From: a virus
Virus record (IMG/VR): IMGVR_UViG_3300029266_002706
Coordinates: 1 to 38,662 of that record
Reading direction: 5' to 3' (one strand)
Length of the DNA: 38,662 bases
How positions within the stretch are numbered: position 1 is the first letter of the stretch; each line of letters starts with the position of its first letter. The notes under the pieces were generated by a model. The model was not told the origin of the DNA. It saw only the letters and a list, made by a program, of their open reading frames with translations, and made no database searches. Position numbers and translations under genes: made by a program. This document shows, one piece after another, positions 1-38,662 of the stretch.

Positions 1-570
1 ATGTGCGGCAGATACGGCGCCCTGGATAGTGAGCGCATCACCCAGTTCGCCCGGGATCTTGGCGCCACCGACTTCGTGATCGAGCATAACCCGGACATCC
101 GGCCCACCAACCGGGTGCCGGTGATCGCCGCCGGCATGGAGACGCATTACGTCGGATGGGGCATTCAGCCACCGTGGGCCTCGCGGATCCTGATCAATGC
201 CCAGGGAGAGACGGTGGCCACAAAGCGGACCTTCGCCGCGGCCTTCCGCGAACACCGGTGCCTGATCCCGCTCGATTGCTGGTATGAATGGCGCGATGAA
301 GGCGGCCGGCGCAAGCAGCGGCACCGGTTCCAGCTGCCCGGCGGTGCTCCGTTGCTGATGGCCGGCATCCTATACCCTGGCGACAAACCCGCCATGGTCT
401 CGCTGACCACCCAGCCGAACGCGGAGAGCGGCGAGATCCACAACCGGATGCCCGCCATGATCCACCCGGACCATTCCCGCCTCTGGACCGAAGGCGCGCC
501 CGATGACGCGCTGCAGCTGATCGGACCGATGGAAGACGGCGCCCTCCAAATCGACCCCGTACCCTCGTAA
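1..570 (+). CDS. yedK: SOS response-associated peptidase (YedK/HMCES, SRAP family)
   Basis: The 189-residue protein belongs to the SRAP family, which forms a covalent link to abasic sites in single-stranded DNA and shields them during replication. The key residues are visible: Cys2 directly after the initiator Met (MCGRYG), the Asn in LINAQGET (Asn67), the Glu in CWYEW (Glu96) and the His in IHNRMP (His147). These correspond to the Cys2, Asn, Glu and His active-site set of E. coli YedK. It is somewhat shorter than the usual 220 or so residues, mostly at the C-terminus. It reads towards the tail operon. It may be a host gene flanking the prophage or a phage-borne moron; SRAP genes occur in both settings. 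No upstream sequence is available to look for a LexA box. Confidence 0.93.
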   Translation: MCGRYGALDSERITQFARDLGATDFVIEHNPDIRPTNRVPVIAAGMETHYVGWGIQPPWASRILINAQGETVATKRTFAAAFREHRCLIPLDCWYEWRDEGGRRKQRHRFQLPGGAPLLMAGILYPGDKPAMVSLTTQPNAESGEIHNRMPAMIHPDHSRLWTEGAPDDALQLIGPMEDGALQIDPVPS

Positions 571-23785: not shown

Positions 23786-24340
23786 CTACGCGGCGATCCG
23801 CCGCCGCTTCTCCGCCAGCACCCGCAACGCCTTGGCCACGTCCCGGCAACTGCCGCAATCCTCATCGAACGCCTGCGCGGCCGCCTCCAGCTCTTCGGGA
23901 ACCATGCCGTCGGCATCGCCCCTGGCAAGCCGGTAGCGCAGCTGGTCGGTCGCCGCGTCGTGCTCGGCATCCAGATTCAGCGCGTCCAGTAGCTCGCCCT
24001 CCCCCGGTTGCTGGCGGGGGAACAGCAGCACCCGGGCGGCGGCCCGGAACGGCTCGGGCAGCACCTCGATGAAATCGAGCGCGAGATCCAGCGGCAGCGT
24101 GGTTTCACCGGTGAGGCATTTTTCCAGGCGCTTGGCGGCCTGGCGCGGGTCATCGGGTGAGAGGCGTGGTCGTTGCTGGCGGCCGGCCCAGCGCTCCGCC
24201 AGATCGCCGGCCACCCGGGTCTGTATGCCGTTGCGGCTGTAGGCCATGACCCGCCACAGAGCCTCAAGCTTGGCGACGGCGCTTCCGCGCTCTTTAATGA
24301 CCTGGGGCACCTGCCCCAAGACCTTGTTGAGCTCATCCAT
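23786..24340 (-). CDS. Hypothetical protein in CII position
   Basis: A 184-residue helical protein, second gene after Cro. I chose the ATG at 24340; the frame could also start at the GTG one codon earlier, and GGGG lies upstream. Segments include NKVLGQVPQVIKERGSAVAK, LEKCLTGETTLPLDLALDFI, and a C-terminal helix CRDVAKALRVLAEKRRRIAA. Lambda encodes CII here, but no clear CII signature is visible. A regulatory role is possible by position only. Confidence 0.6.
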   Translation of the reverse strand: MDELNKVLGQVPQVIKERGSAVAKLEALWRVMAYSRNGIQTRVAGDLAERWAGRQQRPRLSPDDPRQAAKRLEKCLTGETTLPLDLALDFIEVLPEPFRAAARVLLFPRQQPGEGELLDALNLDAEHDAATDQLRYRLARGDADGMVPEELEAAAQAFDEDCGSCRDVAKALRVLAEKRRRIAA

Positions 24341-24358
24341 CACTATCCCCGCTTGACG

Positions 24359-24565: not shown

Positions 24566-24595
24566 ATTAAGGCATACCTTAACTATGAGAGTCAA
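24566..24595 (-). promoter_or_regulatory. pR-like promoter for cro and the replication operon
   Basis: Minus strand -35 TTGACT (24595-24590), 18-bp spacer and -10 CTTAAT (24571-24566). The operator at 24567-24582 covers the spacer and -10, so repressor binding would block polymerase. The expected transcript start is about 20 nt before the Cro ATG. Confidence 0.72.
24567..24582. promoter_or_regulatory. Operator OR1-like
   Basis: TTAAGGCATACCTTAA, a near-perfect palindrome over the cro promoter. Its reverse complement is identical to the operator at 27711-27726. Confidence 0.85.
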
Positions 24596-24601
24596 CGAAA
24601 A

Positions 24602-24617
24602 CAAAGGCATGCCTTTA
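24602..24617. promoter_or_regulatory. Operator OR2-like
   Basis: CAAAGGCATGCCTTTA keeps the palindromic AAGGCATGCCTT core. It partly overlaps the next operator and lies upstream of the likely cI promoter -10, well placed for activation by bound CI. Confidence 0.75.
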
Positions 24618-24630
24618 AGGCAAGCCTTTA
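24615..24630. promoter_or_regulatory. Operator OR3-like
   Basis: TTAAGGCAAGCCTTTA, immediately next to OR2 and touching the likely cI -10 element (24629-24634). Binding here would shut off cI transcription. Confidence 0.75.
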
Positions 24631-24641
24631 ATATCGCGGAA
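24629..24641 (+). promoter_or_regulatory. Putative pRM -10 for cI, leaderless transcript
   Basis: TAATAT at 24629-24634 lies 7 nt before the cI ATG, so transcription would begin at or next to the start codon. The -35 is poor, as expected for an activated promoter. Confidence 0.5.
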
Positions 24642-25358
24642 ATGAATGAGTATGCGGATCGAGTGAAAAAGCTGATGGTGGCCAGGGGCGTATCTGAGCG
24701 CGACATGCGCAGCGCCCTTGCGGACACCTGTGGCATCAAATATCAGTCAGTGAAGGGCTGGTTCGACGGCACCAGCAAGAGCATCACGGCGGGCAACCTC
24801 GCCAAGATTGCCCGCCGCTGGGGCGGAAACCTCGATTGGCTGATAACCGGGCAAGGGGATATGTTCGTCCCGGCGGGGTACTCCGAGGATGAGAGGGCCA
24901 GCTATCTTGTGACCGCCGCCTCTGGCCCATGGACGGACGATGTATCTCCAGGCCCCAGCGTGAGTGGGCAGATCCCGATCATCAGCTACGTCCAGGCTGG
25001 CGAGTTCTGTGAAGCTGAGGACCCCTTTGAGCCTGGGGACGCCGACGACTGGCTTCCGTTCCGGCCGCCGGGCGCGGGGCCGAGGGCCTATGCTCTCCGT
25101 GTCGAAGGGCCCAGCAATAAGCCCAAGATTCAGGACGGGGAGATCGTCATCGTTGATCCTGACCGCGCGCCAGATCCAGGGAAGTTCGTGGTGGCCAAGC
25201 GCCATTCGGATAGCAAGGTGACCCTTAAGCAGCTACAGTTCAGCGAGGGGGAGCCCTATCTCAAACCTGGGAATCCGGACTGGCCAGACCCCATCATCAA
25301 GGTCGATGGAGACTGGAGTGTGTGCGGGGTTGTGGTCGGAAAGTATGACCCTATGTAA
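24642..25358 (+). CDS. cI: CI-like repressor with S24 autocleavage domain
   Basis: A 238-residue phage repressor. I chose the ATG at 24642 (MNEYADRVKK) because earlier in-frame ATGs (24585, 24609) would place operators within the gene. Residues 5-70 are an HTH domain with GIKYQSVKGW as recognition helix; residues about 108-238 are a LexA/S24 domain. The cleavage site is probably A119-G120 (SYVQAGEF), the nucleophile Ser158 (VEGPSNKP) and the base Lys196 (VTLKQL). Ser is followed by Asn, where most relatives have Met. SOS-dependent self-cleavage would induce the prophage. The start is probably leaderless. Confidence 0.93.
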   Translation: MNEYADRVKKLMVARGVSERDMRSALADTCGIKYQSVKGWFDGTSKSITAGNLAKIARRWGGNLDWLITGQGDMFVPAGYSEDERASYLVTAASGPWTDDVSPGPSVSGQIPIISYVQAGEFCEAEDPFEPGDADDWLPFRPPGAGPRAYALRVEGPSNKPKIQDGEIVIVDPDRAPDPGKFVVAKRHSDSKVTLKQLQFSEGEPYLKPGNPDWPDPIIKVDGDWSVCGVVVGKYDPM

Positions 25359-25683
25359 ATTATTCCATAAAGTGCACTCCCTCTTCTCTAGCCTGCTCTC
25401 GCCAACGGGGAGAACTATCAAGTCAAAAATATCCATAGCTCAAAGCTATCAAAGGCATTGGCAATTGATTGCAAAAATACTTTAGCGGCTAAAAACAAGC
25501 GCTGCTCAGAATTCGTCGCCTAACCCATTGAAAATAAAAGGGTGATAGAAAAAAGTTCCTGGATGACTTCCTTTAAGCTTAAGAAAAGTGGTAAAAAATC
25601 ACTTCTGGCGCGATGGGGGCGCTAGAAACAACGATAAAGGACGTGCTATACATCGAGTACAGGCTTTACGAGCCTGGCTTCGC
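25359..25683. other. AT-richer intergenic region upstream of the IrrE-like moron
   Basis: About 325 bases without a credible gene, clearly richer in A and T than the surrounding phage. It contains a 6-bp inverted repeat CAGGCT-TTACG-AGCCTG (25662-25678) just before the promoter, which could be a regulator site. I see no convincing terminator for cI in it. Confidence 0.5.
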
Positions 25684-25712
25684 TTGACGGCTGCGCTGTA
25701 GTGCTGTATAAA
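25684..25712 (+). promoter_or_regulatory. Strong sigma-70-like promoter of the IrrE-like moron
   Basis: -35 TTGACG (25684-25689), 17-bp spacer, -10 TATAAA (25707-25712), 56 nt before the next ATG. No CI/Cro operator overlaps it, so it should be active in a lysogen. Confidence 0.78.
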
Positions 25713-25768
25713 GCGCGTCGCTCAAGCGTGTAGCTTAGCAATCGATATCTAAATATGAGGGGAGAATC

Positions 25769-25978
25769 ATGACGTCTCTACAGGCACCTGCCGTTCAACA
25801 ATTTGAACGTCGGTTCAGCGAACTGCGCGATCAGGGTCTCGTAGACATGAAGTTTTTTGTCGGCGAGGTCGGCGATGCGACCACGGAGGATTTCTGCGAA
25901 GAGTTCCTGCGGATGGACGAGCTTATCAAAGCTAACCAAAGCCGCCCCCTGAATTTTGGCGATTCCACCAAACGCTAA
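25769..25978 (+). CDS. Small partner of the IrrE-like protein
   Basis: A 69-residue acidic protein (MTSLQAPAVQQFERRFSELR, MKFFVGEVGDATTEDFCEEF, ending LNFGDSTKR) with GGGGAG 4 nt before the ATG. No family recognised. It is the first gene after the strong promoter and is followed by a terminator-like hairpin and the IrrE-like gene, so the two form an operon with partial readthrough. Small-plus-IrrE pairs act as regulator and protease in several mobile elements. Whether this pair works in that way is inference. Confidence 0.7.
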   Translation: MTSLQAPAVQQFERRFSELRDQGLVDMKFFVGEVGDATTEDFCEEFLRMDELIKANQSRPLNFGDSTKR

Positions 25979-25999
25979 AAACACAAGTTACCTGCGTCA

Positions 26000-26030
26000 G
26001 AGGCCCCTATACGGGGCCTCTTTCTTTATT
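26000..26030 (+). terminator. Intrinsic terminator/attenuator within the moron
   Basis: Perfect 8-bp stem (26000-26007 with 26013-26020), 5-base loop and a T-rich tract (26021-26030). It lies between the small gene and the IrrE-like gene and should lower expression of the latter. Confidence 0.82.
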
Positions 26031-26041
26031 GGGGAAGGGGC

Positions 26042-26659
26042 ATGAAGGCAACACAATTTATGGCACTGGCCGTTCTCGAGGCCAACAACATCCGTGAACT
26101 ATATGAACAATATAGCCTCCGCGGAGCCGATGATGAGGTCAGCATCGAAGATCTAAAAGACGTCATCTCGGAATATGTACCGATCAAAATTGAAGTGGAA
26201 GAGCTTGACTGGAACGCTCAGCGATACTGGGGGACGATTCAGCGCTTCGACGAATTGGCTCGTATATACGTGGCAATGCAGGGAGAAAAAGACGAGCCCG
26301 GCCGGCTTTCGTACTGCGAACAGCGATTCGTGGTTGCGAAAGAGATGGGCCACCTGGTAATAGACTCCCCCGATAACTTCACCGTCAACGCAGTGGATCT
26401 GGTAGAAGAGCTCTGCGCGCCCATGCTCGCCAAACTGGACGGCCGCCACCAGTTGCAAAGTGAATACATCACAGAGATATTCGCGATTGAGTGTTTGTTC
26501 CCTTACAACCGGCGTCAGGCGCACATCCAACAGATCCGGGATGGCTCCACTACCGCACTGGAGGTCGCGACCCACTTCCGAGTACCAGAGAAGCAAGTGC
26601 GTGTTGCTATGCACCCGGACTATGAGCAGGCCTGTCGGCACATTTATAAACTGCTTTAG
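26042..26659 (+). CDS. IrrE/ImmA-like protein with altered metal motif
   Basis: A 205-residue protein resembling the ImmA/IrrE metallopeptidase family. The segment YCEQRFVVAKEMGHLVIDSP (about residues 91-110) aligns with the zinc-binding helix normally HExxH, but here reads KEMGH, with Lys for the first His. A later EIFAIECLFP (about 146-155) corresponds to the conserved helix with the third ligand and the LLMP-like ending. A C-terminal region (IRDGSTTALEVATHFRVPEK) resembles the helix-turn-helix-like end of the family. The lost ligand suggests no protease activity, or a different one. It is followed by a terminator. Confidence 0.68.
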   Translation: MKATQFMALAVLEANNIRELYEQYSLRGADDEVSIEDLKDVISEYVPIKIEVEELDWNAQRYWGTIQRFDELARIYVAMQGEKDEPGRLSYCEQRFVVAKEMGHLVIDSPDNFTVNAVDLVEELCAPMLAKLDGRHQLQSEYITEIFAIECLFPYNRRQAHIQQIRDGSTTALEVATHFRVPEKQVRVAMHPDYEQACRHIYKLL

Positions 26660-26677
26660 TACCCCGCTCACACAGAG

Positions 26678-26700
26678 GCCCGCCCTTCCGCGGGCTTTTT
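26678..26700 (+). terminator. Intrinsic terminator after the IrrE-like gene
   Basis: 6-bp GC stem (26678-26683 with 26690-26695) and T5 run (26696-26700), 19 bases after the stop. It separates the moron from the convergent lipoprotein gene. Confidence 0.85.
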
Positions 26701-26710
26701 CATGCCTGCC

Positions 26711-27544
26711 CTACTCCGCGTTTCGCACCATCAGAGCCCGCACCCGTTCTTCCGCCGATGGACTGCGACAGGATACCCCTGTCGTTCCGGCAAGTGCCAG
26801 CCGACAAACACCTAGCTCGGCGGGCTCGCGGACAAAATATGGCGGGTAGTCCAGCCCCCTGGCGGGGAACTTGCTGTCGAGCGCCTGGCTGCAGCCTGCT
26901 ACCAATGAGTTGTTGGCTGGCTCAGATAGAGGGCGACAGTGAACCATAGCCCAAAGCTGCTCCCCAGATGGGATGCGCCAGCCGGCTGGATCTGTGGCGC
27001 TGAACTCGTCCTCTACCTCCGCATCTGGATACTCTGTGGGCTGCTCCAGGCACGTGGTGGCCCGCTCATCCCATGTCTGACCTTCACTGCATCGCTTCCA
27101 TTCCAGCCCGGCCGAGTGATCGATAACAACGCTAGGGTCGTCGGGCGACACCTGAAATATCCCCACCACTCCGGTTTTCGCCGGGTCTGTCTCCCTGCTG
27201 CCGGCCGTGGCGGTTACCGCGATGGTGTAGTTATGGCCCCACTCAGGGATCGTCCAGACCATTGGGCTATCGGCGTCCTGGATCCACTCGCTGTGGTCGT
27301 AGGCGGCGTAGTTCTCGACCTCCAGGGCGGGGTCGCTGGACACATAGACTTGGTAGGCATCGGCACCCGACACGCTATCCCAGGTCACTGTCACATGGTC
27401 GCCATCAGTCTGCGCGTCAAGATTCTGCGGAGCAGCCAACGGCGCCGCCGGCGACCCACAGTCTCCGCATGAGGCACCGCCGCCGCTGCCTCCGCCGCAG
27501 CCCGCCAGCACGATGGTCGCGGCAAAGATTGTTGTTCTGATCAT
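26711..27544 (-). CDS. Lipoprotein with Fn3 and DUF1566-like domains (moron)
   Basis: A 277-residue lipoprotein. Start chosen at 27544 (MIRTTIFAATIVLAGC), with GGAGGG 8 nt upstream; the signal peptide ends in lipobox LAGC, with Cys16 as the lipid site. A Gly/Ser/Cys linker follows, then an Fn3-like domain (PQNLDAQTDGDHVTVTWDSV, ADAYQVYVSS), then a DUF1566/Lcl-type region (IDHSAGLEWKRCSEGQTWDE, AGWRIPSGEQLWAMV). It should sit in the outer membrane or periplasm. It is not a structural phage gene. Possible roles are surface change or superinfection exclusion; neither can be shown here. Confidence 0.85.
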   Translation of the reverse strand: MIRTTIFAATIVLAGCGGGSGGGASCGDCGSPAAPLAAPQNLDAQTDGDHVTVTWDSVSGADAYQVYVSSDPALEVENYAAYDHSEWIQDADSPMVWTIPEWGHNYTIAVTATAGSRETDPAKTGVVGIFQVSPDDPSVVIDHSAGLEWKRCSEGQTWDERATTCLEQPTEYPDAEVEDEFSATDPAGWRIPSGEQLWAMVHCRPLSEPANNSLVAGCSQALDSKFPARGLDYPPYFVREPAELGVCRLALAGTTGVSCRSPSAEERVRALMVRNAE

Positions 27545-27576
27545 ATGAGCATCCCTCCATAGCATCCCATCCGGAC

Positions 27577-27604
27577 AGTATACCGGCCCACCCTGCCCGT
27601 TCAT
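27577..27604 (-). promoter_or_regulatory. Candidate promoter of the lipoprotein gene
   Basis: TATACT (27582-27577, minus strand) is a good -10; the -35 (ATGAAC-like, about 27599-27604) is weak. The transcript would start about 25 nt before the ATG. No operator overlaps it. Confidence 0.5.
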
Positions 27605-27642
27605 TTCCCATACCGCCACTGCCATCTGCGCGCCGGCCATCC

Positions 27643-27658
27643 GTGACCACATAGTCAC
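27643..27658. repeat. Inverted repeat GTGAC-N6-GTCAC
   Basis: A perfect 5-bp inverted repeat with a 6-base centre, just before the pL operators and upstream of the lipoprotein promoter. It could be a binding site for a regulator; no family can be named. Confidence 0.35.
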
Positions 27659-27664
27659 AAATAG

Positions 27665-27680
27665 TTCAGGAATGCCTTAC
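27665..27680. promoter_or_regulatory. Operator OL3-like (degenerate)
   Basis: TTCAGGAATGCCTTAC matches 13 of 16 positions of the perfect site at 27711-27726. The farthest and weakest of the three. Confidence 0.55.
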
Positions 27681-27686
27681 TTTAAG

Positions 27687-27702
27687 TTAAGGCACACCTT
27701 TA
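27687..27702. promoter_or_regulatory. Operator OL2-like
   Basis: TTAAGGCACACCTTTA overlaps the -35 of the pL-like promoter. Confidence 0.75.
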
Positions 27703-27727
27703 CTCTCCTTTTAAGGTATGCCTTAAT
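27699..27727 (+). promoter_or_regulatory. pL-like promoter for the integrase-side early operon
   Basis: -35 TTTACT (27699-27704), 17-bp spacer and -10 CTTAAT (27722-27727), the same -10 as the cro promoter. Operators cover both elements. Confidence 0.7.
27711..27726. promoter_or_regulatory. Operator OL1-like
   Basis: TTAAGGTATGCCTTAA, the exact reverse complement of the site over the cro promoter, 3 kb away. Covers spacer and -10 of the pL-like promoter. Confidence 0.85.
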
Positions 27728-27772
27728 ATACCCACGTTCATCAAACACAACGGCCGGAAAAGGGGAGGCCCA

Positions 27773-28147
27773 ATGACCCAATCAAAACAACAACCCGACG
27801 TCACCACGGCGCTGATGGATGCGCTGAATTACCTGCTGGAACAGACCGTGGACCAGCTTCTCGCCGACGGCGACGAGCTGAGCGAAGGCGAGCGGGCGGC
27901 ACGCGATAAAGCCATCTGTGCCCTGGCTGATGCCCACCAGGCCCGCCGCCATCCGAAGAAGGACCTGGTCGCCGACATTCATGAGATCGCCAGCGAGGCC
28001 GTGAGGCGCGAACCCGAAGCCCGGGTGCCGCGCGACCACTTCTTCATCGCTGCGCTCTCGGGACGCCTGCAGGCCGATCATCCAGCGGCCAGCGAGGCGG
28101 TGTTTGCAGTTATCAACGCCGATTGGGCCTGTGGAGGTGCAGCATGA
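27773..28147 (+). CDS. Hypothetical protein, first gene of the second early operon
   Basis: A 124-residue acidic helical protein (MTQSKQQPDVTTALMDALNY, LLEQTVDQLLADGDELSEGE) with GGGGAGG 4 nt before the ATG. It is the first gene after the pL-like promoter and will be made very early on induction. No family recognised. Lambda encodes N in this position, but the protein here is not short and Arg-rich, so there is no sign that it is an N-type antiterminator. Confidence 0.72.
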   Translation: MTQSKQQPDVTTALMDALNYLLEQTVDQLLADGDELSEGERAARDKAICALADAHQARRHPKKDLVADIHEIASEAVRREPEARVPRDHFFIAALSGRLQADHPAASEAVFAVINADWACGGAA

Positions 28148-28413
28148 GCGCCGACCTGCATCCCCTACTCCGCCGGCTGGAAGCCAAGAACCCGACGATG
28201 CGTCAGTCCATCTCGACGTTCCTGCTCGAAGCGCGCCACCGCGACCACCCCGCCGTGATTCGGCGGGGGTACGCCAACCGGATTATTGGCTACCTGGTCG
28301 CGCTGCTCGATGGCGGCGTGATCTCCACCCCTGAGTATCTCGACGCCATCGACGCCCTGGACGCGATCCAGGAGCAGATCACCAAGGACCGGCTGGAGGG
28401 CGCCATCTCATGA
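28144..28413 (+). CDS. Small hypothetical early protein
   Basis: An 89-residue protein (MSADLHPLLRRLEAKNPTMR, ANRIIGYLVALLDGGVISTP) starting in an ATGA overlap with the preceding stop. The C-terminus (EYLDAIDALDAIQEQITKDR) is helical. Similar genes occur in early operons of lambdoid phages; function unknown. Confidence 0.7.
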   Translation: MSADLHPLLRRLEAKNPTMRQSISTFLLEARHRDHPAVIRRGYANRIIGYLVALLDGGVISTPEYLDAIDALDAIQEQITKDRLEGAIS

Positions 28414-28604
28414 GCACGCAACCGACCACGCCGTACACGAAGCGCCGCCAGCAACAGCGGGTTAAGTCCCACATCGAGCGCTTCCTGGAGTCTGGCGGCC
28501 GCATCCGCCAGTTCACCCCCGACCACCGCGAGGTGCGCCGCCCCCGCATCGCTAACCGCGTGCAGCAGCGCCGGCTCGCACAAGCAGAACGGAGGACGTC
28601 ATGA
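28410..28604 (+). CDS. Small basic hypothetical protein
   Basis: A 64-residue very basic protein (KRRQQQRVKSHIERFLESGG, HREVRRPRIANRVQQRRLAQ). It starts in an ATGA overlap with the previous gene. The Arg/Gln content suggests nucleic acid binding. Being small, early and Arg-rich, it is a possible N-like candidate, but no specific motif supports that. Confidence 0.65.
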   Translation: MSTQPTTPYTKRRQQQRVKSHIERFLESGGRIRQFTPDHREVRRPRIANRVQQRRLAQAERRTS

Positions 28605-28762
28605 CCATGGCAACCCGAGTACCTGCCAATGCCGTTGGCCGCCAGTTGCTGGCGGACCACCAGGCCCGCCGCGACATGTTCATCAACGCCGCCGCCCGCC
28701 GGGCGCGACACCCGAACCGCGCGCAGCGGTTCTGGAAAGAATTCACACGACCGATGCGCTGA
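28601..28762 (+). CDS. Tiny basic hypothetical protein
   Basis: A 53-residue protein starting in an ATGA overlap (28601). The sequence reads MTMATRVPANAVGRQLLADH, then QARRDMFINAAARRARHPNR and a short WKEF-containing tail. It is one of three consecutive translationally coupled small basic genes. Function unknown. Confidence 0.62.
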   Translation: MTMATRVPANAVGRQLLADHQARRDMFINAAARRARHPNRAQRFWKEFTRPMR

Positions 28763-28821
28763 TTCGGTTGCTTTCCGGGGCTCCGGGCCCGGTGCTTTAT
28801 TCGATCTCGAGGGAGGGAGAT

Positions 28822-29163
28822 ATGGGCTTAGTGGAGGTGTGGCTCTGCGGAGAGTGTGACACCGAGTACGACGATCACCGTCCGGCCATGGAGTGCTGTG
28901 CGCCAGAGCCGTCGCTGCTGTTCAAGTGCCCGGATTGCGAGGCGGCTTATCCCGAAGAAGAAGGGGCGGAGAGCTGCTGCGGCGCCGCCGTGCAATGCCC
29001 TGTATGCCTGCGCGATCACAGCGGCGGGTCCATCGACGCGGTCGCTGTTGCCATCGCCGGCCACTGCCGGAGCTGCCGGCCGTATTACGACGTCGACCAG
29101 CAGCTCGTCATCGAGGCCCAGTTCGAAGAGCGGACGGGCGCATTCGTATCACTGAATAAGTAG
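28822..29163 (+). CDS. Cys-rich zinc-binding hypothetical protein
   Basis: A 113-residue protein; start chosen at 28822 (MGLVEVWLCGECDTEYDD) with GGGAGGGAG just upstream. Many cysteines in CxxC and CC patterns (CGEC, ECCAPEP, CPDC, SCCGAAVQCPVC, CRSC) indicate three or more zinc ribbons. It is the last of the first group of early genes before the antisense membrane protein. The role is unknown; small zinc proteins like this often bind host proteins or nucleic acid. Confidence 0.75.
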   Translation: MGLVEVWLCGECDTEYDDHRPAMECCAPEPSLLFKCPDCEAAYPEEEGAESCCGAAVQCPVCLRDHSGGSIDAVAVAIAGHCRSCRPYYDVDQQLVIEAQFEERTGAFVSLNK

Positions 29164-29197
29164 GGGCATCTGCATCATGCACAAGCAAATTCGCGAA

Positions 29198-29842
29198 CTA
29201 CAGAGAGCCGTGCCGCTCCACGTATTCAGCGTAGGAGGTCGACCGGCCGTGCCCAAAGCCAGTATCCCCAGGGAAAACATCGAGCCAACTGGCTTCGCGG
29301 TTGTCGCCGAACACTTCATGGAAGTGCTGCAGTTTAGGTTCGAATTCCTCAAGGTCGCCAGCTATCTCAGCAAAACCTTGCAGCTTCGCGATCTCTGGCT
29401 TATCCAGAATTTCATTCAGCATCTGGGCGGCGGCTTGGACTGCTCGCGAAACAGCCATCACGTCCCGGACTGCCTGCGTACTCGGGAGATCTTTAAAGAC
29501 GAGAGTATCGAGAAAGCTCTGTGTCTGAATCAGGCTGTCCCTGACACCGCGAAGGTAGATTGGGTGTGCGCTGCCTTCGCCTTCGATGAAATCAACAAGC
29601 TCTTTGAGCGTGGATCGCGCCAGATTGACCGTCGCTTTGAATCTTGCCAAAGACTGCAGATGGTCCATGTGTACCTTCTGGCGATAAAGCTCAACAGAAT
29701 CGCGCATCGTCTGTTTGCTTCTGGTGCCTGCATACAAAATAGCCAGCCCAGAGAGAATCGCCTGAACCCAAGCCGCCGTCGGGCTACTCCAAAACCAAGA
29801 TGCCCAGCAGTCCGCGTCGCCCCCACACCAATACCAATCCAT
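29198..29842 (-). CDS. Antisense membrane-anchored protein A
   Basis: A 214-residue protein read against the operon. Start chosen at 29842 (MDWYWCGGDADCWASW), with GGGAG 7 nt upstream. A short Cys/Trp-rich N-terminus is followed by one membrane helix (about 24-40, WVQAILSGLAILYAG) and a large helical domain, probably cytoplasmic. The start pattern M-[DE]-x3-C-G-G-x3-C-W-x2-W recurs in protein B at 31799-32482. The opposite long + frame (29177-29920) is its shadow. Antisense placement and a shared upstream motif suggest expression in the lysogen. A superinfection-exclusion role is possible and unproven. Confidence 0.72.
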   Translation of the reverse strand: MDWYWCGGDADCWASWFWSSPTAAWVQAILSGLAILYAGTRSKQTMRDSVELYRQKVHMDHLQSLARFKATVNLARSTLKELVDFIEGEGSAHPIYLRGVRDSLIQTQSFLDTLVFKDLPSTQAVRDVMAVSRAVQAAAQMLNEILDKPEIAKLQGFAEIAGDLEEFEPKLQHFHEVFGDNREASWLDVFPGDTGFGHGRSTSYAEYVERHGSL

Positions 29843-29870
29843 TCCTCTGCTCCCTTTTTTATTTCGGGGG

Positions 29871-29900
29871 AGCATGCCGCATTCCACCAGCCTGCGCCAA
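29871..29900 (-). promoter_or_regulatory. Shared upstream element of protein A
   Basis: Minus strand TTGGCG (29900-29895), 16 bases, then GGCATGCT (29878-29871) and a C-run, 28 bases before the ATG. The same motif with the same spacing lies before protein B. It may be a promoter with TTGGCG as -35 and CATGCT as -10. Confidence 0.5.
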
Positions 29901-29916
29901 GTCAGGAGGTGGCGGC

Positions 29917-31797
29917 ATGAAGACCGAGATCCGACACTTTCACCTCTTCTGCGGCCTGGGCGGCGGCGCCAAGGGCTTCAACGCCGGCGAAGCCCGGGTG
30001 GGCGCCATGGAGGCCGAGTTCCGCTGCATCGGTGGCGTTGATAACGACGCGGCAGCGATCGCTGATTTCGGGCGGGCCGCCGGCACCCCGGGCACCGTCC
30101 TGGATATGTTCAGCCGCGAGCAGTTCGAGGCCTTCCACGGGCGCGAGCCGTCAGCAGACTGGCGGGAATCCACACCGGAGGACATTCAGCGCGCCGCCGG
30201 CGGCGAGCGGCCCCACATCGTGTTCCTGTCCGCGCCCTGCAAAGGCTTCTCTGGGCTGCTGTCACAGACCCGCAGCACCACGCCCAAGTACCAGGCCCTC
30301 AACGGCCTGACCCTGCGCGGTGTCTGGCTGATGCTGGAAGCGTGGCGGGACGACCCGCCGGAGCTGGTCATCTTCGAGAACGTGCCCCGTATTGCGAACC
30401 GTGGCCGGCCGCTGCTGGACCAGATCGGCGCGCTGCTGGAGGCCTACGGCTACGCGGTGGCGGAAACCACTCACGACTGCGGCGAACTGGGCGGCCTGGC
30501 ACAGAGCCGAAAGCGGTTTCTGCTGGTGGCCCGCCACCAGGAGAAAGTGCCGGCGTTCCTGTACGAGCCCACCAAGCGGCCCCTGGCTGCCGTGGGCGAC
30601 ATCCTCGGCCGCATGCCCCTCCCCGGCGACCCCGGTGCAGGCCCGATGCACAGGGTGCCGCGTCTCCAGTGGAAAACCTGGGTGCGCCTTGCGTTCGTGG
30701 AAGCCGGCAGCGACTGGCGCAGCCTGAACCGCCTGGCGGTGGAAGACGGAAACCTGCGCGATTACCTGATCGTTCCGGACATGCACGGCGGCACCTACGG
30801 CGTCCGGGGCTGGGGCCAGTCGGCAGGCACCATCACCGGTAACGCCCGCCCCGTTACCGGAGCGTTCTCCGTGGCAGACCCGCGCTACGACGGTCAGGAC
30901 TACGGGGCCTATGGGGTCCTCGACTGGCAGTCATCCACCGGCGTCGTCACCGGCCAGCGGTCACCGGGTCAGGGCAAGTTCAGCGTGGCCGACCCGCGCC
31001 ACCACGGGGCGCCGAAGCACAATAACTGCTTCCGGGTGGTTCGCTGGGACGGCGAGAGCCGGGCCGTCACCGGCGCCCACGGCAGCGGCCAGTGCGTTGC
31101 AGATCCGCGCGGCGGGCACTTCGATGCCGAATGCGGAGTGGTGGATTGGCAGCAGGCGGTGGGGGCTATCGCTGGGAAAACCGCCCCCTCGAACGGACGG
31201 TTCAGTGTCGCAGATCCCAGGCCGCCGGCCGGCCCTCTTTTCAGCAAGTACGCGGTGACTCCCTTCTCGGCGCGCACCGGCACCGTCATCGGCGGCGACG
31301 ACGCCGGGGCCTACGCGGTTGCAGACCCTCGGCCACGGATGCAGCGCGGCAACGGCGACCACTACCTAACCGGTGGCCACTACGGCGTCGTGCCCTGGTC
31401 CGCCAGCACCGGCGCTGTCTCTGCCAGCGCCTGCCACGACAACGGCCGCTGGTCCGTCGCGGACCCGCGCATGCCCGCCCTGCGCGACAAGCTGGTGGCG
31501 ATGATCCAGTCGCTCGACGGCACATGGCACCGCCCCTTCACCACCCTGGAACTCGCAGCTCTGCAGGGGCTGGTGGATCCGGAAGAGCAGCTGGAGCTGG
31601 ACGGGCTGAGCGACGGGGCCTGGCGGGAGCGGATCGGTAATGCGGTACCGCCGCCGGCGGCGCAGGCCATCGCCTCGATGATGGGCGAGACCCTGCTGCT
31701 GGCCATGGCCGGCGAGACCTTCATCCTCAGCGCTATACCGGTGTGGGTGCGTCCTATCGCCACTGCGCTTTCGTTGCCGGAGGCACAAGGTGACTAG
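29917..31797 (+). CDS. DNA cytosine-5 methyltransferase with VADPR repeat insert
   Basis: A 626-residue C5 methyltransferase; start at 29917 with AGGAGGT 6 nt upstream. Motif I is LFCGLGGGAKGF (about residues 10-21), motif IV SAPCKGFSG with catalytic Cys108, motif VI ENVPR (Glu154), motif VIII QSRKRF (196-201), motif IX FTTLELAALQGL (from 541), motif X GNAVPPPAAQAI (from 574). Between motifs VIII and IX, about residues 289-518, lie six copies of a 37-46-residue unit ending in VADPR; the target recognition region belongs there. There is no restriction partner, so it is an orphan enzyme that may protect phage DNA or alter host expression. Confidence 0.92.
   Translation: MKTEIRHFHLFCGLGGGAKGFNAGEARVGAMEAEFRCIGGVDNDAAAIADFGRAAGTPGTVLDMFSREQFEAFHGREPSADWRESTPEDIQRAAGGERPHIVFLSAPCKGFSGLLSQTRSTTPKYQALNGLTLRGVWLMLEAWRDDPPELVIFENVPRIANRGRPLLDQIGALLEAYGYAVAETTHDCGELGGLAQSRKRFLLVARHQEKVPAFLYEPTKRPLAAVGDILGRMPLPGDPGAGPMHRVPRLQWKTWVRLAFVEAGSDWRSLNRLAVEDGNLRDYLIVPDMHGGTYGVRGWGQSAGTITGNARPVTGAFSVADPRYDGQDYGAYGVLDWQSSTGVVTGQRSPGQGKFSVADPRHHGAPKHNNCFRVVRWDGESRAVTGAHGSGQCVADPRGGHFDAECGVVDWQQAVGAIAGKTAPSNGRFSVADPRPPAGPLFSKYAVTPFSARTGTVIGGDDAGAYAVADPRPRMQRGNGDHYLTGGHYGVVPWSASTGAVSASACHDNGRWSVADPRMPALRDKLVAMIQSLDGTWHRPFTTLELAALQGLVDPEEQLELDGLSDGAWRERIGNAVPPPAAQAIASMMGETLLLAMAGETFILSAIPVWVRPIATALSLPEAQGD
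30781..31470 (+). repeat. Six-unit VADPR repeat in the methyltransferase
   Basis: Protein repeat of about 37-38 residues (46 in the last), pattern Y-G-V-x-W-x2-S-x-G-x-[VI]-[TS]-G-x(6)-G-x-F-S-V-A-D-P-R. The first VADPR codons start at 30871 and the last end at 31470. The DNA copies have diverged, so expansion is not recent. Confidence 0.85.
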
Positions 31798-31798
31798 A

Positions 31799-32482
31799 TC
31801 AAGACCGTTTCGAAAATCTCAGTTTCCGGCACAAGCTAGCTCGCGGCCACGCATGCTGCATAAGAACCTTACGAGCGTCCCAGAGAGACTGTTCAGCATC
31901 TTGAAGTCGCATCTCGAGGCTCCCCGATGCCGCGATCAAAGCCTTACAGCAGGACGCCAAATCACTAACGGCGGTCTGCACTTCATGCTCGTGGCTTATC
32001 TCGTCGAGGAGCGGTGCCCCTGTGTCATAGCTATTTTTGCGCGCCGCCGCCAAACGCTCGATAGCCAGACGAAGAAGGCGGGTTTCTTCCAGAACGCCCA
32101 ATGCGGCACCGAGAAAATCCGGATTGCCGGACTCTTTCATCGGTATGTCGAAGAAGGCTTCTTCTTGCACATAGAGGATGTTATGAATCCGACTGATTTG
32201 CCAGTCAGTAAGGCCGTCCGTGTCGACACTGCTTTTAGCAAGTTTGCATTGCTCCATCAGCCTCAGGTGGCATTGCATCACCACGAACGTCGTCTGCAGC
32301 CGGTGTTCGATCTTCTCAATTTTCGCTTTTGCGTCTTGGTGCCTTCGCTCGACCCATGGACCTCTAACTGCAATCCAGGCAACAAAGGTTGCCGCAACAA
32401 CCTGAGCCCAGCCAGCCCAGTTGACACTCGAAAGCCATCCGTACCAACAGCCCCAGTTTCCCCCGCAAAACGAATATTCCAT
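31799..32482 (-). CDS. Antisense membrane-anchored protein B
   Basis: A 227-residue protein on the minus strand; start chosen at 32482 (MEYSFCGGNWGCWYGW). After the Cys/Trp-rich start comes one membrane helix (about 23-41, GWAQVVAATFVAWIAVRG) and a long charged helical domain (AKAKIEKIEHRLQTTFVVMQ, LEETRLLRLAIERLAAARKN). The N-terminus follows the same pattern as protein A, and the upstream element is shared. Its stop is one base from the methyltransferase stop. The C-terminus is basic (ASLCRKLRFSKRS). The function is unknown; see protein A. Confidence 0.72.
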   Translation of the reverse strand: MEYSFCGGNWGCWYGWLSSVNWAGWAQVVAATFVAWIAVRGPWVERRHQDAKAKIEKIEHRLQTTFVVMQCHLRLMEQCKLAKSSVDTDGLTDWQISRIHNILYVQEEAFFDIPMKESGNPDFLGAALGVLEETRLLRLAIERLAAARKNSYDTGAPLLDEISHEHEVQTAVSDLASCCKALIAASGSLEMRLQDAEQSLWDARKVLMQHAWPRASLCRKLRFSKRS

Positions 32483-32510
32483 GTTCACCCCAGATCGTCC
32501 CCTTTGGGGA

Positions 32511-32540
32511 AGCATGCCCTACCGGTATGCACGTCGCCAA
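32511..32540 (-). promoter_or_regulatory. Shared upstream element of protein B
   Basis: Minus strand TTGGCG (32540-32535), 16 bases, GGCATGCT (32518-32511) and a C-run, 28 bases before the ATG: the same element and spacing as before protein A. Confidence 0.5.
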
Positions 32541-32556
32541 GCCTGGAGGAATCCGC

Positions 32557-33183
32557 ATGAGCGTATCCGCCTACCCTTTAGAGTGGCCGCGCCACGTACC
32601 CCGCCGCCAGCAACGGGACAGCGCCCGGTGGCGGCAGGACGGGAAGCGCCTGACCGTGGCGCAGGCTCGACGCAGGCTGATCGAGGAAATCGACAAGATG
32701 ACCAAGCCGGGACACACCTACCGAGTGGACCCCGACCTGGTCATCGTCAGCACCAACATCCGTAGCCGGGGTGACGGCATGCCCTACTCCAACGCCCGCG
32801 AGCCGGAGGATCCGGCGGTGGCCGTCTACTTCGAGCTGGACGGCGAGCCCCACTGCATGCCCTGCGACGCCTGGGACCGGGTAGCCGACAACATCGCGGC
32901 GGTGGCCGCCCACATCGGCGCCATGCGCGGGATAGAGCGCTGGGGCGTCTCCGACATCCGGCAAGCGTTCACCGCGTTCAAAGCCCTGCCCAGCTCCGCC
33001 AGCAACGCCGCCGGCGCCTGGTGGGTGGTGCTGGAGGTGGACCACAACGCCAGCCCCGACGACGTGCGCGCGGCCTACCAGCGCCGGCGCAAAGAAACCC
33101 ACCCCGACCACGGCGGCGACGCCGCTCAATTCAGCGCCGTTCAGCGCGCATGGGAACAGTATCAGGAGGCCCGGAATGGATAA
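32557..33183 (+). CDS. Phage J-domain protein
   Basis: A 208-residue protein; start chosen at 32557 with GGAGG 7 nt upstream. The N-terminal part (YPLEWPRHVPRRQQRDSARW, DLVIVSTNIRSRGDGMPYSN, VAVYFELDGEPHCMPCDAWD) belongs to a family common in Pseudomonas-like phages. The C-terminal 60 residues are a J domain with His-Pro-Asp at residues 182-184 (KETHPDHGGD), which stimulates DnaK ATPase. It probably recruits host DnaK during replication or assembly. It overlaps the next gene by 8 bases. Confidence 0.9.
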   Translation: MSVSAYPLEWPRHVPRRQQRDSARWRQDGKRLTVAQARRRLIEEIDKMTKPGHTYRVDPDLVIVSTNIRSRGDGMPYSNAREPEDPAVAVYFELDGEPHCMPCDAWDRVADNIAAVAAHIGAMRGIERWGVSDIRQAFTAFKALPSSASNAAGAWWVVLEVDHNASPDDVRAAYQRRRKETHPDHGGDAAQFSAVQRAWEQYQEARNG

Positions 33184-35392
33184 GCTTCGCGCAGACATGG
33201 ACGCCATCGAGGACAGCATCGCCCAGGGCGACATGAGCGCCGCCCAGGTGTTCACCCAAATGAAGCAGATGGTGGAGGCCGCCAGCACCCAGGCCCACAC
33301 CGACCTGGAGTCCCGTCTGGTGGTGGGCGCCCGGGTCAAGATCGGCCCGGCGTATGCTGCCGCCCACCCGAACTGCAAAGCCGGCGACATCATCACGCTG
33401 GTGCGCGGCGAGTTCGAGCACGAAAACGGCCTCTACACCGAACACGTGAGCGTCCCCTCCATATGGGACAGCGACTCCCGCGAGTTCGATTCCATCTACC
33501 ATCTGTTCGAGAACGACCTGAGCGGCTTCATGGATTGTGAAATCCTGCCACCGCCTATGGCGGTCGCTTTGCCGGCCGGCTTCCGCGCCTGGCTGGACGC
33601 CGTGGTCACCGTGGCCAACGCCACAGGCATGGACCACGACGAAGTGATCCCGACTTGGCCGCACTATACGGACGACGACCGGAAGATGTTCGCGAATCAC
33701 CCGGAACTGCGCGTCGGCGATGTGATGGAGCTGGACGCGCTGCTGGCCGGTGCTGACGGCACGCCCCAGGTGGTTTTCTCCGACACCCAGGAAGAGATCG
33801 AGGCCCGTTTAGCCGATCAACTGGAAAACTCCTGCCCGTATTGCCGTGGCAGCGGGCACAAGGACGACGTAGCCAAGCCCCAGGTGGCGGTGCCGGAGGG
33901 GTGGCCAACGGATGACGTGATCCTGACGTTGGCTCGGAAATGGTTTGACCGCAAGCAATACAGGGCCATGACGTTCGAGCGCTGGAAAGATGGGGTTGAG
34001 GTAGACCATCCCTCGGTCGGCCTTCGAGACTTCGCTCGAAACCTGCTCGCCGCTCCCACCGCGCCCGCCGGGGAGACGGCAGAGTGGCCCGAGCCCCAGG
34101 ACGCCATGACGGCCCACTTGCAAGATGCGGCGCGGAAGGCCGGTTACCAGCCTCATGAACTGAACATGCAGCTATCCGTGTTTGCCGGACACCTGATGGC
34201 GGGCATGATCCCCGACGAGAAACCTGTAATCGATCCTGGTGGGTCGCTAGCAACGCTGCTCGATGAAGTCGCCGAGCTACAGCACTACGCGAATGAGCTG
34301 GCCGACATGGCCACCAACGGCGTTCAGTGGCTGCGCAACGTGCAAGGCGGGATTTCCACTCCCGACGAGGCCCTGGCGGAAATGGAAGCCAACTGGAGGC
34401 GGATCAAGGCCCTCCCATGCCCCCCGTCCGAACGCGATGACCAAAGGCGTCGCCGCCTCGGTGCCCCCGCCCCGAATGAGCGGGAGGCCTGGTACAGCGC
34501 TCAGGAAATGTACGACTTCCTAATCCGCCGCGACTATTCCGCGCAGATCGCCAGTGAGCTGTCCGAGTTGTGGGCCGATTCATTGAACGCAGCGCGGCAG
34601 CGGGCGCTCACCGAGAATGCACCGGACGAACGGGAGATAGCGGACTGGCTCAATCGGGAGATCGGGCTCGCCAACGCATGCGCCAAGAAACACAAGGACA
34701 CGCCCAATCCCGAGGCCCACGCCATCATGGTCGGCAGGATCAACGCGCTGAAAGAAGTTCGGGGCAGGCTGCCTGCCCGCCTCCGCGCCGGGGGGCCGGC
34801 GCCCTACGAGCATCGTGTGAATGGCTGGATGATGGAGTGCTTCGGGGCGGAGATCGCCGCCGACCTTGAGGAACGCAATCACCGGTTCCTGGAAGAAGCT
34901 TTGGAGCTGGTCCAGTCCACCGGCTGTACCGCCGAAGCCGCGCACCTACTGGTCGATTATGTGTTCGGGCGCCCTGTCGGCGAGCCGTTCCAGGAGGTCG
35001 GCGGCGTCCGGGTCACCCTGGCGGCGCTGTGCCTCGCCAACGGGATCAACGGCGAGGCGGCGGCAGAGGCCGAACTGGCGCGCGTCACCCAGCCGGATGT
35101 TATCGCGCGGATCCGCGAGAAGCAGAAGCGGAAGCCTCAGTTCGGCCCGCTGCCGGGGGTCTACCCGGAGCGCACGGCGGCGCCGGCCACAGCCATGCCG
35201 CAGCACTACGACGCCGCCGTGGCGGTAGCCCGCCAGCACCGGCGCGTCTACCCCACGCTCCTCCAGCGGCACTTAGGCATCGCCTACAGCAACGCCCTCC
35301 AACTGATCGACCACCTGGAGGCCCGCGGTGTGGTGGGCGCGCCTGACGACAACGGCTGCCGCCGGTTGCTGGCGGAAGGGGGTGAATCGTGA
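33176..35392 (+). CDS. Multidomain protein: MazG-like domain fused to FtsK-gamma-like winged helix
   Basis: A 738-residue protein. The N-terminal part (about 1-540) is not recognised; it contains ARVKIGPAYAAAHPNCKAGD (about 50-70), a CPYCRGSGHKD motif near 220 and a helical region near 360-410. Residues about 546-660 form a phage MazG-like nucleotide pyrophosphohydrolase domain (RFLEEALELVQSTGCTAEAA, VDYVFGRPVGEPFQEVGGV, TLAALCLANGINGEAA). Residues about 678-735 resemble the FtsK gamma DNA-binding winged helix (YDAAVAVARQHRRVYPTLLQ, LIDHLEARGVVG). It may link nucleotide hydrolysis to DNA. The N-terminal part could be several fused phage units. Confidence 0.78.
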   Translation: MDKLRADMDAIEDSIAQGDMSAAQVFTQMKQMVEAASTQAHTDLESRLVVGARVKIGPAYAAAHPNCKAGDIITLVRGEFEHENGLYTEHVSVPSIWDSDSREFDSIYHLFENDLSGFMDCEILPPPMAVALPAGFRAWLDAVVTVANATGMDHDEVIPTWPHYTDDDRKMFANHPELRVGDVMELDALLAGADGTPQVVFSDTQEEIEARLADQLENSCPYCRGSGHKDDVAKPQVAVPEGWPTDDVILTLARKWFDRKQYRAMTFERWKDGVEVDHPSVGLRDFARNLLAAPTAPAGETAEWPEPQDAMTAHLQDAARKAGYQPHELNMQLSVFAGHLMAGMIPDEKPVIDPGGSLATLLDEVAELQHYANELADMATNGVQWLRNVQGGISTPDEALAEMEANWRRIKALPCPPSERDDQRRRRLGAPAPNEREAWYSAQEMYDFLIRRDYSAQIASELSELWADSLNAARQRALTENAPDEREIADWLNREIGLANACAKKHKDTPNPEAHAIMVGRINALKEVRGRLPARLRAGGPAPYEHRVNGWMMECFGAEIAADLEERNHRFLEEALELVQSTGCTAEAAHLLVDYVFGRPVGEPFQEVGGVRVTLAALCLANGINGEAAAEAELARVTQPDVIARIREKQKRKPQFGPLPGVYPERTAAPATAMPQHYDAAVAVARQHRRVYPTLLQRHLGIAYSNALQLIDHLEARGVVGAPDDNGCRRLLAEGGES

Positions 35393-37445: not shown

Positions 37446-37638
37446 GCGAGTGATCACCGAGGAAGAGCTGCTGCAGGATACCGGCTTTGCCCGGCGCGGC
37501 GACCTTCGGAAGTGGCTCGACCAGGAGCACATCCCCTACCGGGTCGGCCGCGGCGGTCGGATCTGCGGCGTGACCGTCGACGCCTACAGCGCGGCGGCGA
37601 ACGACGGCGGCGGCATCGAGTTCGAAGATGGGCCGTAG
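37438..37638 (+). CDS. Excisionase-like protein (DUF4224)
   Basis: A 66-residue protein starting MGERVITEEELLQDTGFARR, then WLDQEHIPYRVGRGGRI. This follows the DUF4224 pattern, a winged-helix MerR-like fold found immediately upstream of phage integrases, where it probably acts as recombination directionality factor. The stop overlaps the integrase start by 11 bases. An excisionase role is inference from family and position. Confidence 0.85.
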   Translation: MGERVITEEELLQDTGFARRGDLRKWLDQEHIPYRVGRGGRICGVTVDAYSAAANDGGGIEFEDGP

Positions 37639-38662
37639 TCGTGGCACCCGCCGGGACAACGCGCTCCCGGAATACGTCTACCGGATCCCATCCAAGGACC
37701 GGATCATCTGGCGGGAGTACCTGGGAAAGGGCCGCTTTGGGCGGTCCATCACCCTGCTCGACCCCCAAGGGCACCCTCTGCGCGCTCAGGCGCACCACAG
37801 GGCCATCCTGACGGCCTATAACCGCCAGGTGGCCCAGGGCGGCGCACGGACCCTGGAGTGGCTGCTGAAAGAGCACATGAAGGCGCCCCGCCCCCGGCCC
37901 ATCGCCAAGCGCACCCGCGATAATTACGAAAGCTACATCCAGGCGATCTGCGAAGCGCCGGTGAAGGGCGGCCATGTCTTCGGCGACATGGACATTCGGA
38001 AGCTGAGCCGGGGCACCATGGTGCGGTACCGGGACCGGATGAAGGACACGCCGACCATGGCCAACCGCCACCTGCAGTTCCTGTCAGCGGCATTCTCCTG
38101 GGCGATTGAACGGGAGTACCTGGACACGAACCCATGCAAAGGGGTGCGTAAGTTCTCCACGCCGCCGCGCGACCGCTACGTGGAGGACTGGGAATTCGCG
38201 CTGGTGCAGCGCCTCGCGCCGGATTATGTGGCGGTGGCCATGGAGTTCGCCTACCTGATGCGGGCGCGCCGGGGCGAGATCCTGGCCCTTCGCCGGGACG
38301 ACGTGGACGAGCGCGGGATATTCCTGCGGCGGTCTAAGGCCAGCGAGTCAGAGGTGACGCTGTGGTCGGACCGCCTGACGACAGCTTACGAAACTGCCCA
38401 GGCGCTCCACCGGGGGACGATCAGCCCCTGGATACTCCACCGGGCCGACGGCGGCCCCATCGATCCGGAGGCCTTTTCCTCGGCCTGGGACCGGGTCATG
38501 GCCAAGGCGCTCAACAAGGGCGGGCTGGGCGAGCGGTTCACGTTCCACGATCTCAAGGCGAAGGGGCTGACCGACGACACCGAGCACTGGGCCGGCCACA
38601 AATCGGAGCGGATGCGTCAGATCTACCAGAGGCTGGCGAGGGAGAAGAAGGCCACCCGGTGA
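37628..38662 (+). CDS. int: Tyrosine integrase
   Basis: A 344-residue phage tyrosine recombinase. Residues about 1-70 are an arm-binding-type N-terminus (PSKDRIIWREYLGKGRFGRS), about 75-170 the core-binding domain (TLEWLLKEHMKAP, ANRHLQFLSAAFSWAIEREY), and 180-344 the catalytic domain. Catalytic residues are Arg214 (MRARRGEIL), His307 and Lys310 in FHDLKAKG (the second Arg is Lys, as in this integrase subfamily), His324 (AGHKSERM) and nucleophile Tyr333 (RQIYQRL). It catalyses integration and, with the small protein upstream, excision. As usual the attachment site should lie beside it, here probably past the end of the window. Confidence 0.95.
   Translation: MGRSRGTRRDNALPEYVYRIPSKDRIIWREYLGKGRFGRSITLLDPQGHPLRAQAHHRAILTAYNRQVAQGGARTLEWLLKEHMKAPRPRPIAKRTRDNYESYIQAICEAPVKGGHVFGDMDIRKLSRGTMVRYRDRMKDTPTMANRHLQFLSAAFSWAIEREYLDTNPCKGVRKFSTPPRDRYVEDWEFALVQRLAPDYVAVAMEFAYLMRARRGEILALRRDDVDERGIFLRRSKASESEVTLWSDRLTTAYETAQALHRGTISPWILHRADGGPIDPEAFSSAWDRVMAKALNKGGLGERFTFHDLKAKGLTDDTEHWAGHKSERMRQIYQRLAREKKATR

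What the first reader, a model, noticed from the sequence alone, without database searches (positions are those of the whole stretch)
29198..32540. Two related membrane proteins, antisense, flank the methyltransferase with a shared upstream element
Seen: proteins A (29198-29842) and B (31799-32482) both begin M-[DE]-x3-C-G-G-x3-C-W-x2-W-, then one membrane helix and a long helical domain. Both run against the operon. Before each ATG at exactly the same distance lies TTGGCG-N16-GGCATGCT-C-run (28 bases from GGCATGCT to ATG). The C-terminal domains differ strongly. Inference: a duplicated cassette with a common promoter and interchangeable effector domains, expressed when the early operon is silent. 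That suits superinfection exclusion or abortive infection, with A and B as different specificities. I know of no named system with this layout.
Basis: partly seen in the sequence, partly recalled or inferred. Interest (0 to 1): 0.8.

Follow-up and report, generated by a model that had tools for sequence, protein, structure and literature searches.

The report
Antisense membrane-protein cassettes flanking phage methyltransferase
Two related membrane proteins encoded backwards in a temperate phage's early operon belong to a large, unnamed phage gene family that repeatedly sits beside a DNA methyltransferase with its own start signal, and probably helps a dormant phage protect its host from other phages.

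Summary
A and B are real genes, homologous over most of their length, antisense in the early operon of a lambda-like temperate phage, with a shared upstream element; the gap to the divergent gene is exactly 74 nt in both cases. A profile built without A and B recovers both, so they are divergent members of a large, unnamed phage protein family: a DWAxWVQAxGS membrane helix followed by a variable helical domain (N-termini match PHROG 33632, function unknown). Fifteen family genes lie next to a C5-methyltransferase, all antisense: ten 3' of it (B's slot), five 5' of it (A's slot); one other phage fills both slots. Members often occur in two or three copies per phage. They carry a conserved promoter-like leader, which also precedes unrelated antisense genes. 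In one subgroup the N-terminus is 60-66% identical and the C-terminus only 16-21%. So 'common leader, changeable effector' is supported as a general feature. The layout has a precedent, lambda sieB, antisense in the PL operon, but A and B do not match the SieB family. Superinfection exclusion or abortive defence is the likeliest role, but it is untested.

The parts
29198..29842 (-). Gene A: 214 aa, short Cys/Trp N-terminal tail, one membrane helix, cytoplasmic helical domain (inferred topology); occupies the divergent slot 5' of the methyltransferase
   Evidence: Translation; called as gene; family profile built without it E=8.6e-5, 23.2 bits against at most 8.3 for shuffles
31799..32482 (-). 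Gene B: 227 aa, same architecture; occupies the convergent slot 3' of the methyltransferase
   Evidence: Translation; called as gene; family profile E=1.8e-6; BLASTP to A E=9e-6
29843..29916 (.). 74-nt divergent spacer A/methyltransferase; - strand carries TTGGCG-N16-GGCATGCT (29871-29900), + strand carries the ribosome-binding site of the methyltransferase
   Evidence: promoter role inferred
32483..32556 (.). 74-nt divergent spacer B/DnaJ-domain gene; - strand carries the second copy of the element (32511-32540)
   Evidence: promoter role inferred
29917..31797 (+). C5-cytosine DNA methyltransferase between A and B
   Evidence: Similar to annotated phage methyltransferases; 80 relatives in IMG/VR
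32557..33183 (+). DnaJ-domain protein of the early operon, divergent from B
   Evidence: PF00226 E=3.8e-7; phrog_9210 E=4.6e-61; relatives
28822..29163 (+). Small Cys-rich protein of the early operon, convergent with A
   Evidence: phrog_32948 E=4.9e-21
24585..25358 (+). CI-like repressor at the head of the early region (sequence reading)
   Evidence: Frame; position next to a CII-like gene 23786-24343(-), phrog_4834 E=2.6e-6

Best explanation
A and B are lysogen-expressed accessory ('moron') genes for inner-membrane proteins that defend the host of the dormant phage against other phages. Each is read from its own promoter against the early operon. While CI keeps the operon silent the antisense promoters are free; during lytic growth, transcription through the operon and its antisense RNA would switch A and B off. 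The N-terminal part anchors the protein in the inner membrane with the helical domain in the cytoplasm, where it would block entry or early steps of an incoming phage, the variable C-terminal domain setting the target. Shown: homology of A and B, family membership, antisense position beside the methyltransferase, shared leaders, and a constant N-terminus with variable C-terminus in the family. Inferred: promoter activity, timing, topology, and the exclusion function.
For: A profile made without A and B finds both. Fifteen family genes flank a C5-methyltransferase, all antisense; L292 has both slots filled like the window. Both neighbours are on the other strand in 25 of 42 family cases against 43 of 279 other genes. 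-10-like box TA[ACG]GAT in 35 of 76 family leaders against 20 of 545 controls; leader core 35 found against 0.8 expected, always on one strand within a locus. Subgroup with N-terminus 60-66% and C-terminus 16-21% identical. Several copies per phage in 16 of 71 loci. Precedent: lambda sieB antisense in the PL operon; sas RNA controls P22 sieB (PMC12197685); accessory prophage loci are often highly expressed in lysogens (PMC7067206).
Against: No expression or phenotype data. No match to any known exclusion or defence family. The A/B element is not of the main leader type and scores poorly as a sigma-70 promoter (0 hits in 25300-33300). No terminator directly after A or B. Leader hairpins are not better than shuffles.
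Confidence: 0.5

Rival explanations
1. A and B are membrane-active effectors of abortive infection: the helical domain senses a phage event in the cytoplasm and the membrane segment then damages the membrane or stops growth.
For: Membrane helix plus variable helical domain fits sensor-effector proteins; several diverged copies per phage.
Against: No PADLOC, Pfam or NCBIfam match; no partner gene; no recognisable catalytic domain.
Confidence: 0.2
2. They are lysogenic-conversion genes that alter the host envelope or physiology without an anti-phage purpose.
For: Accessory prophage loci often have such roles (PMC7067206); an antisense lipoprotein gene lies nearby at 26711-27544.
Against: Fast C-terminal divergence and multiple copies fit conflict better than a host-benefit role (inference).
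Confidence: 0.15
3. The antisense transcription itself is the function: it restrains the methyltransferase and the downstream early genes in the lysogen, and the proteins matter little.
For: Convergent or divergent position at the methyltransferase in all 15 cases; the leader overlaps operon start codons in 29 of 35 cases.
Against: The protein core W-x2-W-[AV]-Q-A is conserved across very different DNA; many members lie beside other genes.
Confidence: 0.12

Closest known systems
PHROG 33632 (phage proteins of unknown function)
   Same: All ten family members tested match it, mainly through the N-terminal membrane segment; L172 too, E=9.5e-4
   Different: A and B do not reach it on their own; C-terminal domains mostly lie outside the match; no function is assigned
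SieB of lambda and P22 (Pfam PF14163)
   Same: Temperate-phage exclusion protein, membrane N-terminal part, gene antisense inside the PL operon between ral and N; in P22 controlled by the antisense RNA sas (PMC12197685)
   Different: No sequence match of A or B to PF14163 at E up to 10, while lambda SieB scores 1e-29; SieB is single copy
SieA of P22
   Same: Inner-membrane exclusion protein of a temperate phage with divergent types of about 25% identity at one genome position (PMC10883804)
   Different: Three predicted membrane helices and a place between genes 16 and 9; sequence relation not tested
Phage morons / prophage accessory loci
   Same: Extra genes with presumed own promoter, against the operon, lower G+C (0.54-0.55 against 0.63 for the window), variable between relatives
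   Different: No terminator found; repeated leader shared by several different antisense genes of one phage, and fixed slots beside the methyltransferase

Membership tests
DWAxWVQAxGS phage membrane-protein family (defined here; PHROG 33632-like) | Match to the N-terminal membrane-segment profile | tested here: met
   B E=1.8e-6, A E=8.6e-5 with a profile made without them; reversed and shuffled controls negative
DWAxWVQAxGS phage membrane-protein family (defined here; PHROG 33632-like) | Lone antisense gene in a co-oriented early operon | tested here: met
   A and B both so placed; same in most of the family
DWAxWVQAxGS phage membrane-protein family (defined here; PHROG 33632-like) | Leader with TA[ACG]GAT-type -10 box | tested here: inconclusive
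   A and B have CATGCT-CCCC instead, closest to CATACTCCCC in L268; 35 of 76 members have the main type
PHROG 33632 | Direct match to the PHROG profile | tested here: not met
   No match of A or B at E up to 10; linked only through intermediate members
SieB (PF14163) | Match to the Pfam model | tested here: not met
   No match at E up to 10; lambda SieB control E=1e-29
SieB (PF14163) | Gene antisense within the PL-type early operon | tested here: met
   Window layout compared with lambda
SieB (PF14163) | Exclusion of superinfecting phages and control by an antisense RNA | not testable with these tools
   Needs expression and challenge experiments
Moron (autonomous accessory prophage gene) | Own promoter | tested here: inconclusive
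   Shared leader element and family leader statistics, but no sigma-70 consensus hit
Moron (autonomous accessory prophage gene) | Own terminator | tested here: not met
   No terminator-like site directly after A or B
Moron (autonomous accessory prophage gene) | Absent from relatives at the same place, deviating composition | tested here: met
   B absent before the DnaJ-domain gene in the 23 relatives inspected; A and B G+C 0.55 and 0.54 against 0.69 for their + strand neighbours

The most novel reading that the evidence does not exclude
Many temperate phages carry a modular exclusion arsenal: a portable compact leader, whose -10 box overlaps the start codon of the opposing operon gene, drives antisense cassettes at fixed places such as the two sides of the methyltransferase. 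Its main product is a membrane anchor with an exchangeable cytoplasmic domain, and the phage changes its exclusion specificity by duplicating or swapping that domain.
Probability: 0.35. Interest if true: 0.82.

Novelty: new variant of a known kind. Interest (0 to 1): 0.62.

Why it matters
It links an anonymous pair of genes to a large, unnamed phage family with a shared leader and anchor, a variable effector domain, and a recurring antisense niche by the methyltransferase. If the products exclude other phages, this would be a widespread and readily searchable source of new anti-phage proteins and a general form of the lambda sieB arrangement. Because the genes run against the operon they are easily missed or called on the wrong strand: in Achromobacter phage CF418P1 the deposited annotation calls a + strand frame where the profile finds the family on the - strand.

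Tried and rejected
Direct searches with A and B found no relatives: A and B in IMG/VR, INPHARED and PLSDB, A in GTDB genomes. Pfam, PHROGs, NCBIfam and PADLOC were empty or at noise level for A and B. The upstream string is not a specific marker. The DNA regex for the CGG-x3-CW motif gave only chance hits with stops. Rfam: nothing. Leader hairpins fold no better than shuffles, so no RNA structure is claimed. Fold searches with the low-confidence models (pLDDT 65) gave only generic helical bundles. PHROG 33632 in 369 genomes rang nowhere, not even in the control genomes, so it says nothing; the N-terminal profile gave 2 weak matches in 274 genomes. tblastn with family members finds nothing in INPHARED, so the family is mostly seen in IMG/VR prophages. 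Searches used the methyltransferase one base out of frame (its start is 29917); later calls are corrected. The host was not identified; distant relatives infect Pseudomonas, Marinobacter, Achromobacter and Caulobacter. I dropped the idea that the shared element is only the ribosome-binding region of the + genes, because the similarity continues into the coding starts of A and B.

Full report
Setting. The window is one IMG/VR virus record of 38,662 bases. It reads as a lambda-like temperate phage: late genes on the - strand, a CII-like gene at 23786-24343(-), a CI-like repressor at 24585-25358(+), and a + strand early operon from 25769 to the integrase at 37628-38662. A, B and a lipoprotein gene at 26711-27544 are the only - strand genes that a simple gene caller finds between CI and the integrase.

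The observation. A (29198-29842) and B (31799-32482) have the stated coordinates, starts and N-terminal motif. TTGGCG-N16-GGCATGCT is found exactly twice, 28 nt before each ATG. The gap between the antisense ATG and the ATG of the next + gene is 74 nt in both cases and matches at 35 of 74 positions; runs of at least 8 and at least 7 in register occur in 25 of 2,000,000 random pairs. A and B align by BLASTP over residues 1-177 at 20% identity, E=9e-6. Single-sequence AlphaFold models are of low confidence (pLDDT 65) but show the same order of helices: membrane segment, long helix to residue 88-89, then helices near 93-113, 121-153 and from 154-159 onward.

What they are. Direct searches failed, so I looked at what other phages carry beside the same methyltransferase and the same DnaJ-domain gene. 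L218 has the same order: an antisense membrane protein before the methyltransferase, another antisense frame after it, then the DnaJ-domain gene. Its membrane protein and one from L172 suggested a shared core, W-x2-W-[AV]-Q-A. A DNA pattern for D-W-A-x-W-[AV]-Q-A found 58 stretches in IMG/VR, nearly all near the N-terminus of frames of about 170-245 aa. A profile from 46 of these, extended with eight genes found in the methyltransferase loci but without A and B, scored B at E=1.8e-6 and A at E=8.6e-5 among 28,068 frames. Reversed frames gave no hit at E up to 1; shuffled A and B reached at most 8.3 and 7.4 bits against 23.2 and 28.6 for the real ones. All ten members tested match PHROG 33632, unknown function, chiefly in the N-terminal part; Pfam gives nothing above its cut-offs.

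Where they sit. In 25 of 42 cases both neighbours of a family gene are on the other strand, against 43 of 279 other genes of 90-260 aa in the same loci (the caller is crude). Neighbours include methyltransferases, a RecT-like protein, a ParB-like protein and a PAPS reductase. Fifteen family genes lie within 350 nt of a C5-methyltransferase; all are antisense and none is on the same strand within 600 nt. Ten are 3' convergent, B's slot: window, L126, L172, L173, L178, L197, L204, L205, L226, L292. Five are 5' divergent, A's slot: window, L218, L288, L292, L303. L172 and L173 are near-identical loci. Many of these loci were fetched because they hold the methyltransferase, so the count shows position and orientation, not overall frequency. 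L292 has both slots filled, like the window. In L126 (Achromobacter phage CF418P1) the deposited annotation calls a + strand frame there. Sixteen of 71 loci have two or more members.

Leader. Family genes carry a -10-like box 20-45 nt before the start: TA[ACG]GAT in 35 of 76 non-redundant leaders against 20 of 545 leaders of other genes. The core CATG[CA]TA[ACG]GAT occurs 35 times in 58 loci (0.8 expected by shuffling). In loci with several copies it is always on one strand, and in 29 of 35 cases its CAT is the start codon of an opposite-strand frame of at least 60 aa. The leader also precedes about 20 other frames, most of them short and unrelated; some may be chance. Within L292 two members share CATGCTAA[GT]ATTCCTTTCAAACAACT. 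In Pseudomonas phages D14H, PP9W, PotUPM1 and LKA5 a different leader, with ..CCGGCATRGGGCCGG.., precedes different small antisense genes beside the same methyltransferase. So repeated leaders for antisense genes occur in more than one phage group. The A/B element is not of the main type: it has CATGCT followed by C-rich sequence, nearest to CATACTCCCC of L268. Its promoter role is inferred.

Constant and variable parts. Among L264, L282 and L303 the first 58 residues are 60-66% identical and the rest 16-21%. This supports swapping or fast divergence of the C-terminal part. For A and B themselves an old duplication is enough.

Mechanism. Acidic residues before and basic residues after the membrane helix of A suggest that the C-terminal domain is cytoplasmic (inference from sequence). 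The arrangement equals that of lambda sieB, which lies antisense between ral and N in the PL operon. In P22 the sas antisense RNA governs sieB translation (PMC12197685). Accessory prophage genes are often highly expressed in lysogens (PMC7067206). I therefore commit to lysogen-expressed exclusion at probability 0.5, with abortive infection at 0.2, host conversion at 0.15 and regulation by antisense transcription at 0.12. A and B are not SieB family members: PF14163 gives no match, while lambda SieB gives E=1e-29.

Verdict. The kind (antisense prophage accessory genes) is known. The family, its slots by the methyltransferase and the portable leader are, to my knowledge and in the papers searched, not described.

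Noticed in passing
window 26711-27544 (-): A third antisense gene in the early operon: a lipoprotein-like protein with a weak Lcl C-terminal domain match; TATACT lies 36 nt or so before its likely ATG at 27544-27542, so it may have its own promoter too.
   Followed up: partly
L126 5287-5949 (-), Achromobacter phage CF418P1: Family member on the - strand where the deposited annotation has a + strand hypothetical protein (WNO49155.1); probably a wrong-strand gene call.
   Followed up: partly
L127, L128, L129, L130: upstream of small antisense genes beside the methyltransferase: Pseudomonas phages share a leader (..TGGCGCAGTG..CCGGCATGGGGCCGG..AGGAG) before several different short antisense genes; found in 11 phage records.
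   Followed up: partly
L290, L263, L294 and other IMG/VR loci: Leader TCATGCTAGGATTCC recurs two or three times per locus on one strand, also before short unrelated frames such as MTRVQTESGIRN; a possible bidirectional start-codon/-10 element.
   Followed up: partly
L218 8010-8423 (-): Another unrelated antisense frame (MGQYQVVQLENGRW) fills B's slot in L218, so the slot accepts different genes; no family match.
   Followed up: no
window 26042-26659 (+): ImmA/IrrE-like (Peptidase_M78, E=1.2e-5) gene just after the repressor region; its motif reads EMGH rather than HExxH, so it may be inactive.
   Followed up: no
window 1-570 (+): SOS-associated peptidase-like (YedK/HMCES type, by sequence reading) gene at the left end; a DUF159 gene is antisense near the integrase in Marinobacter phage PS3.
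   Followed up: no
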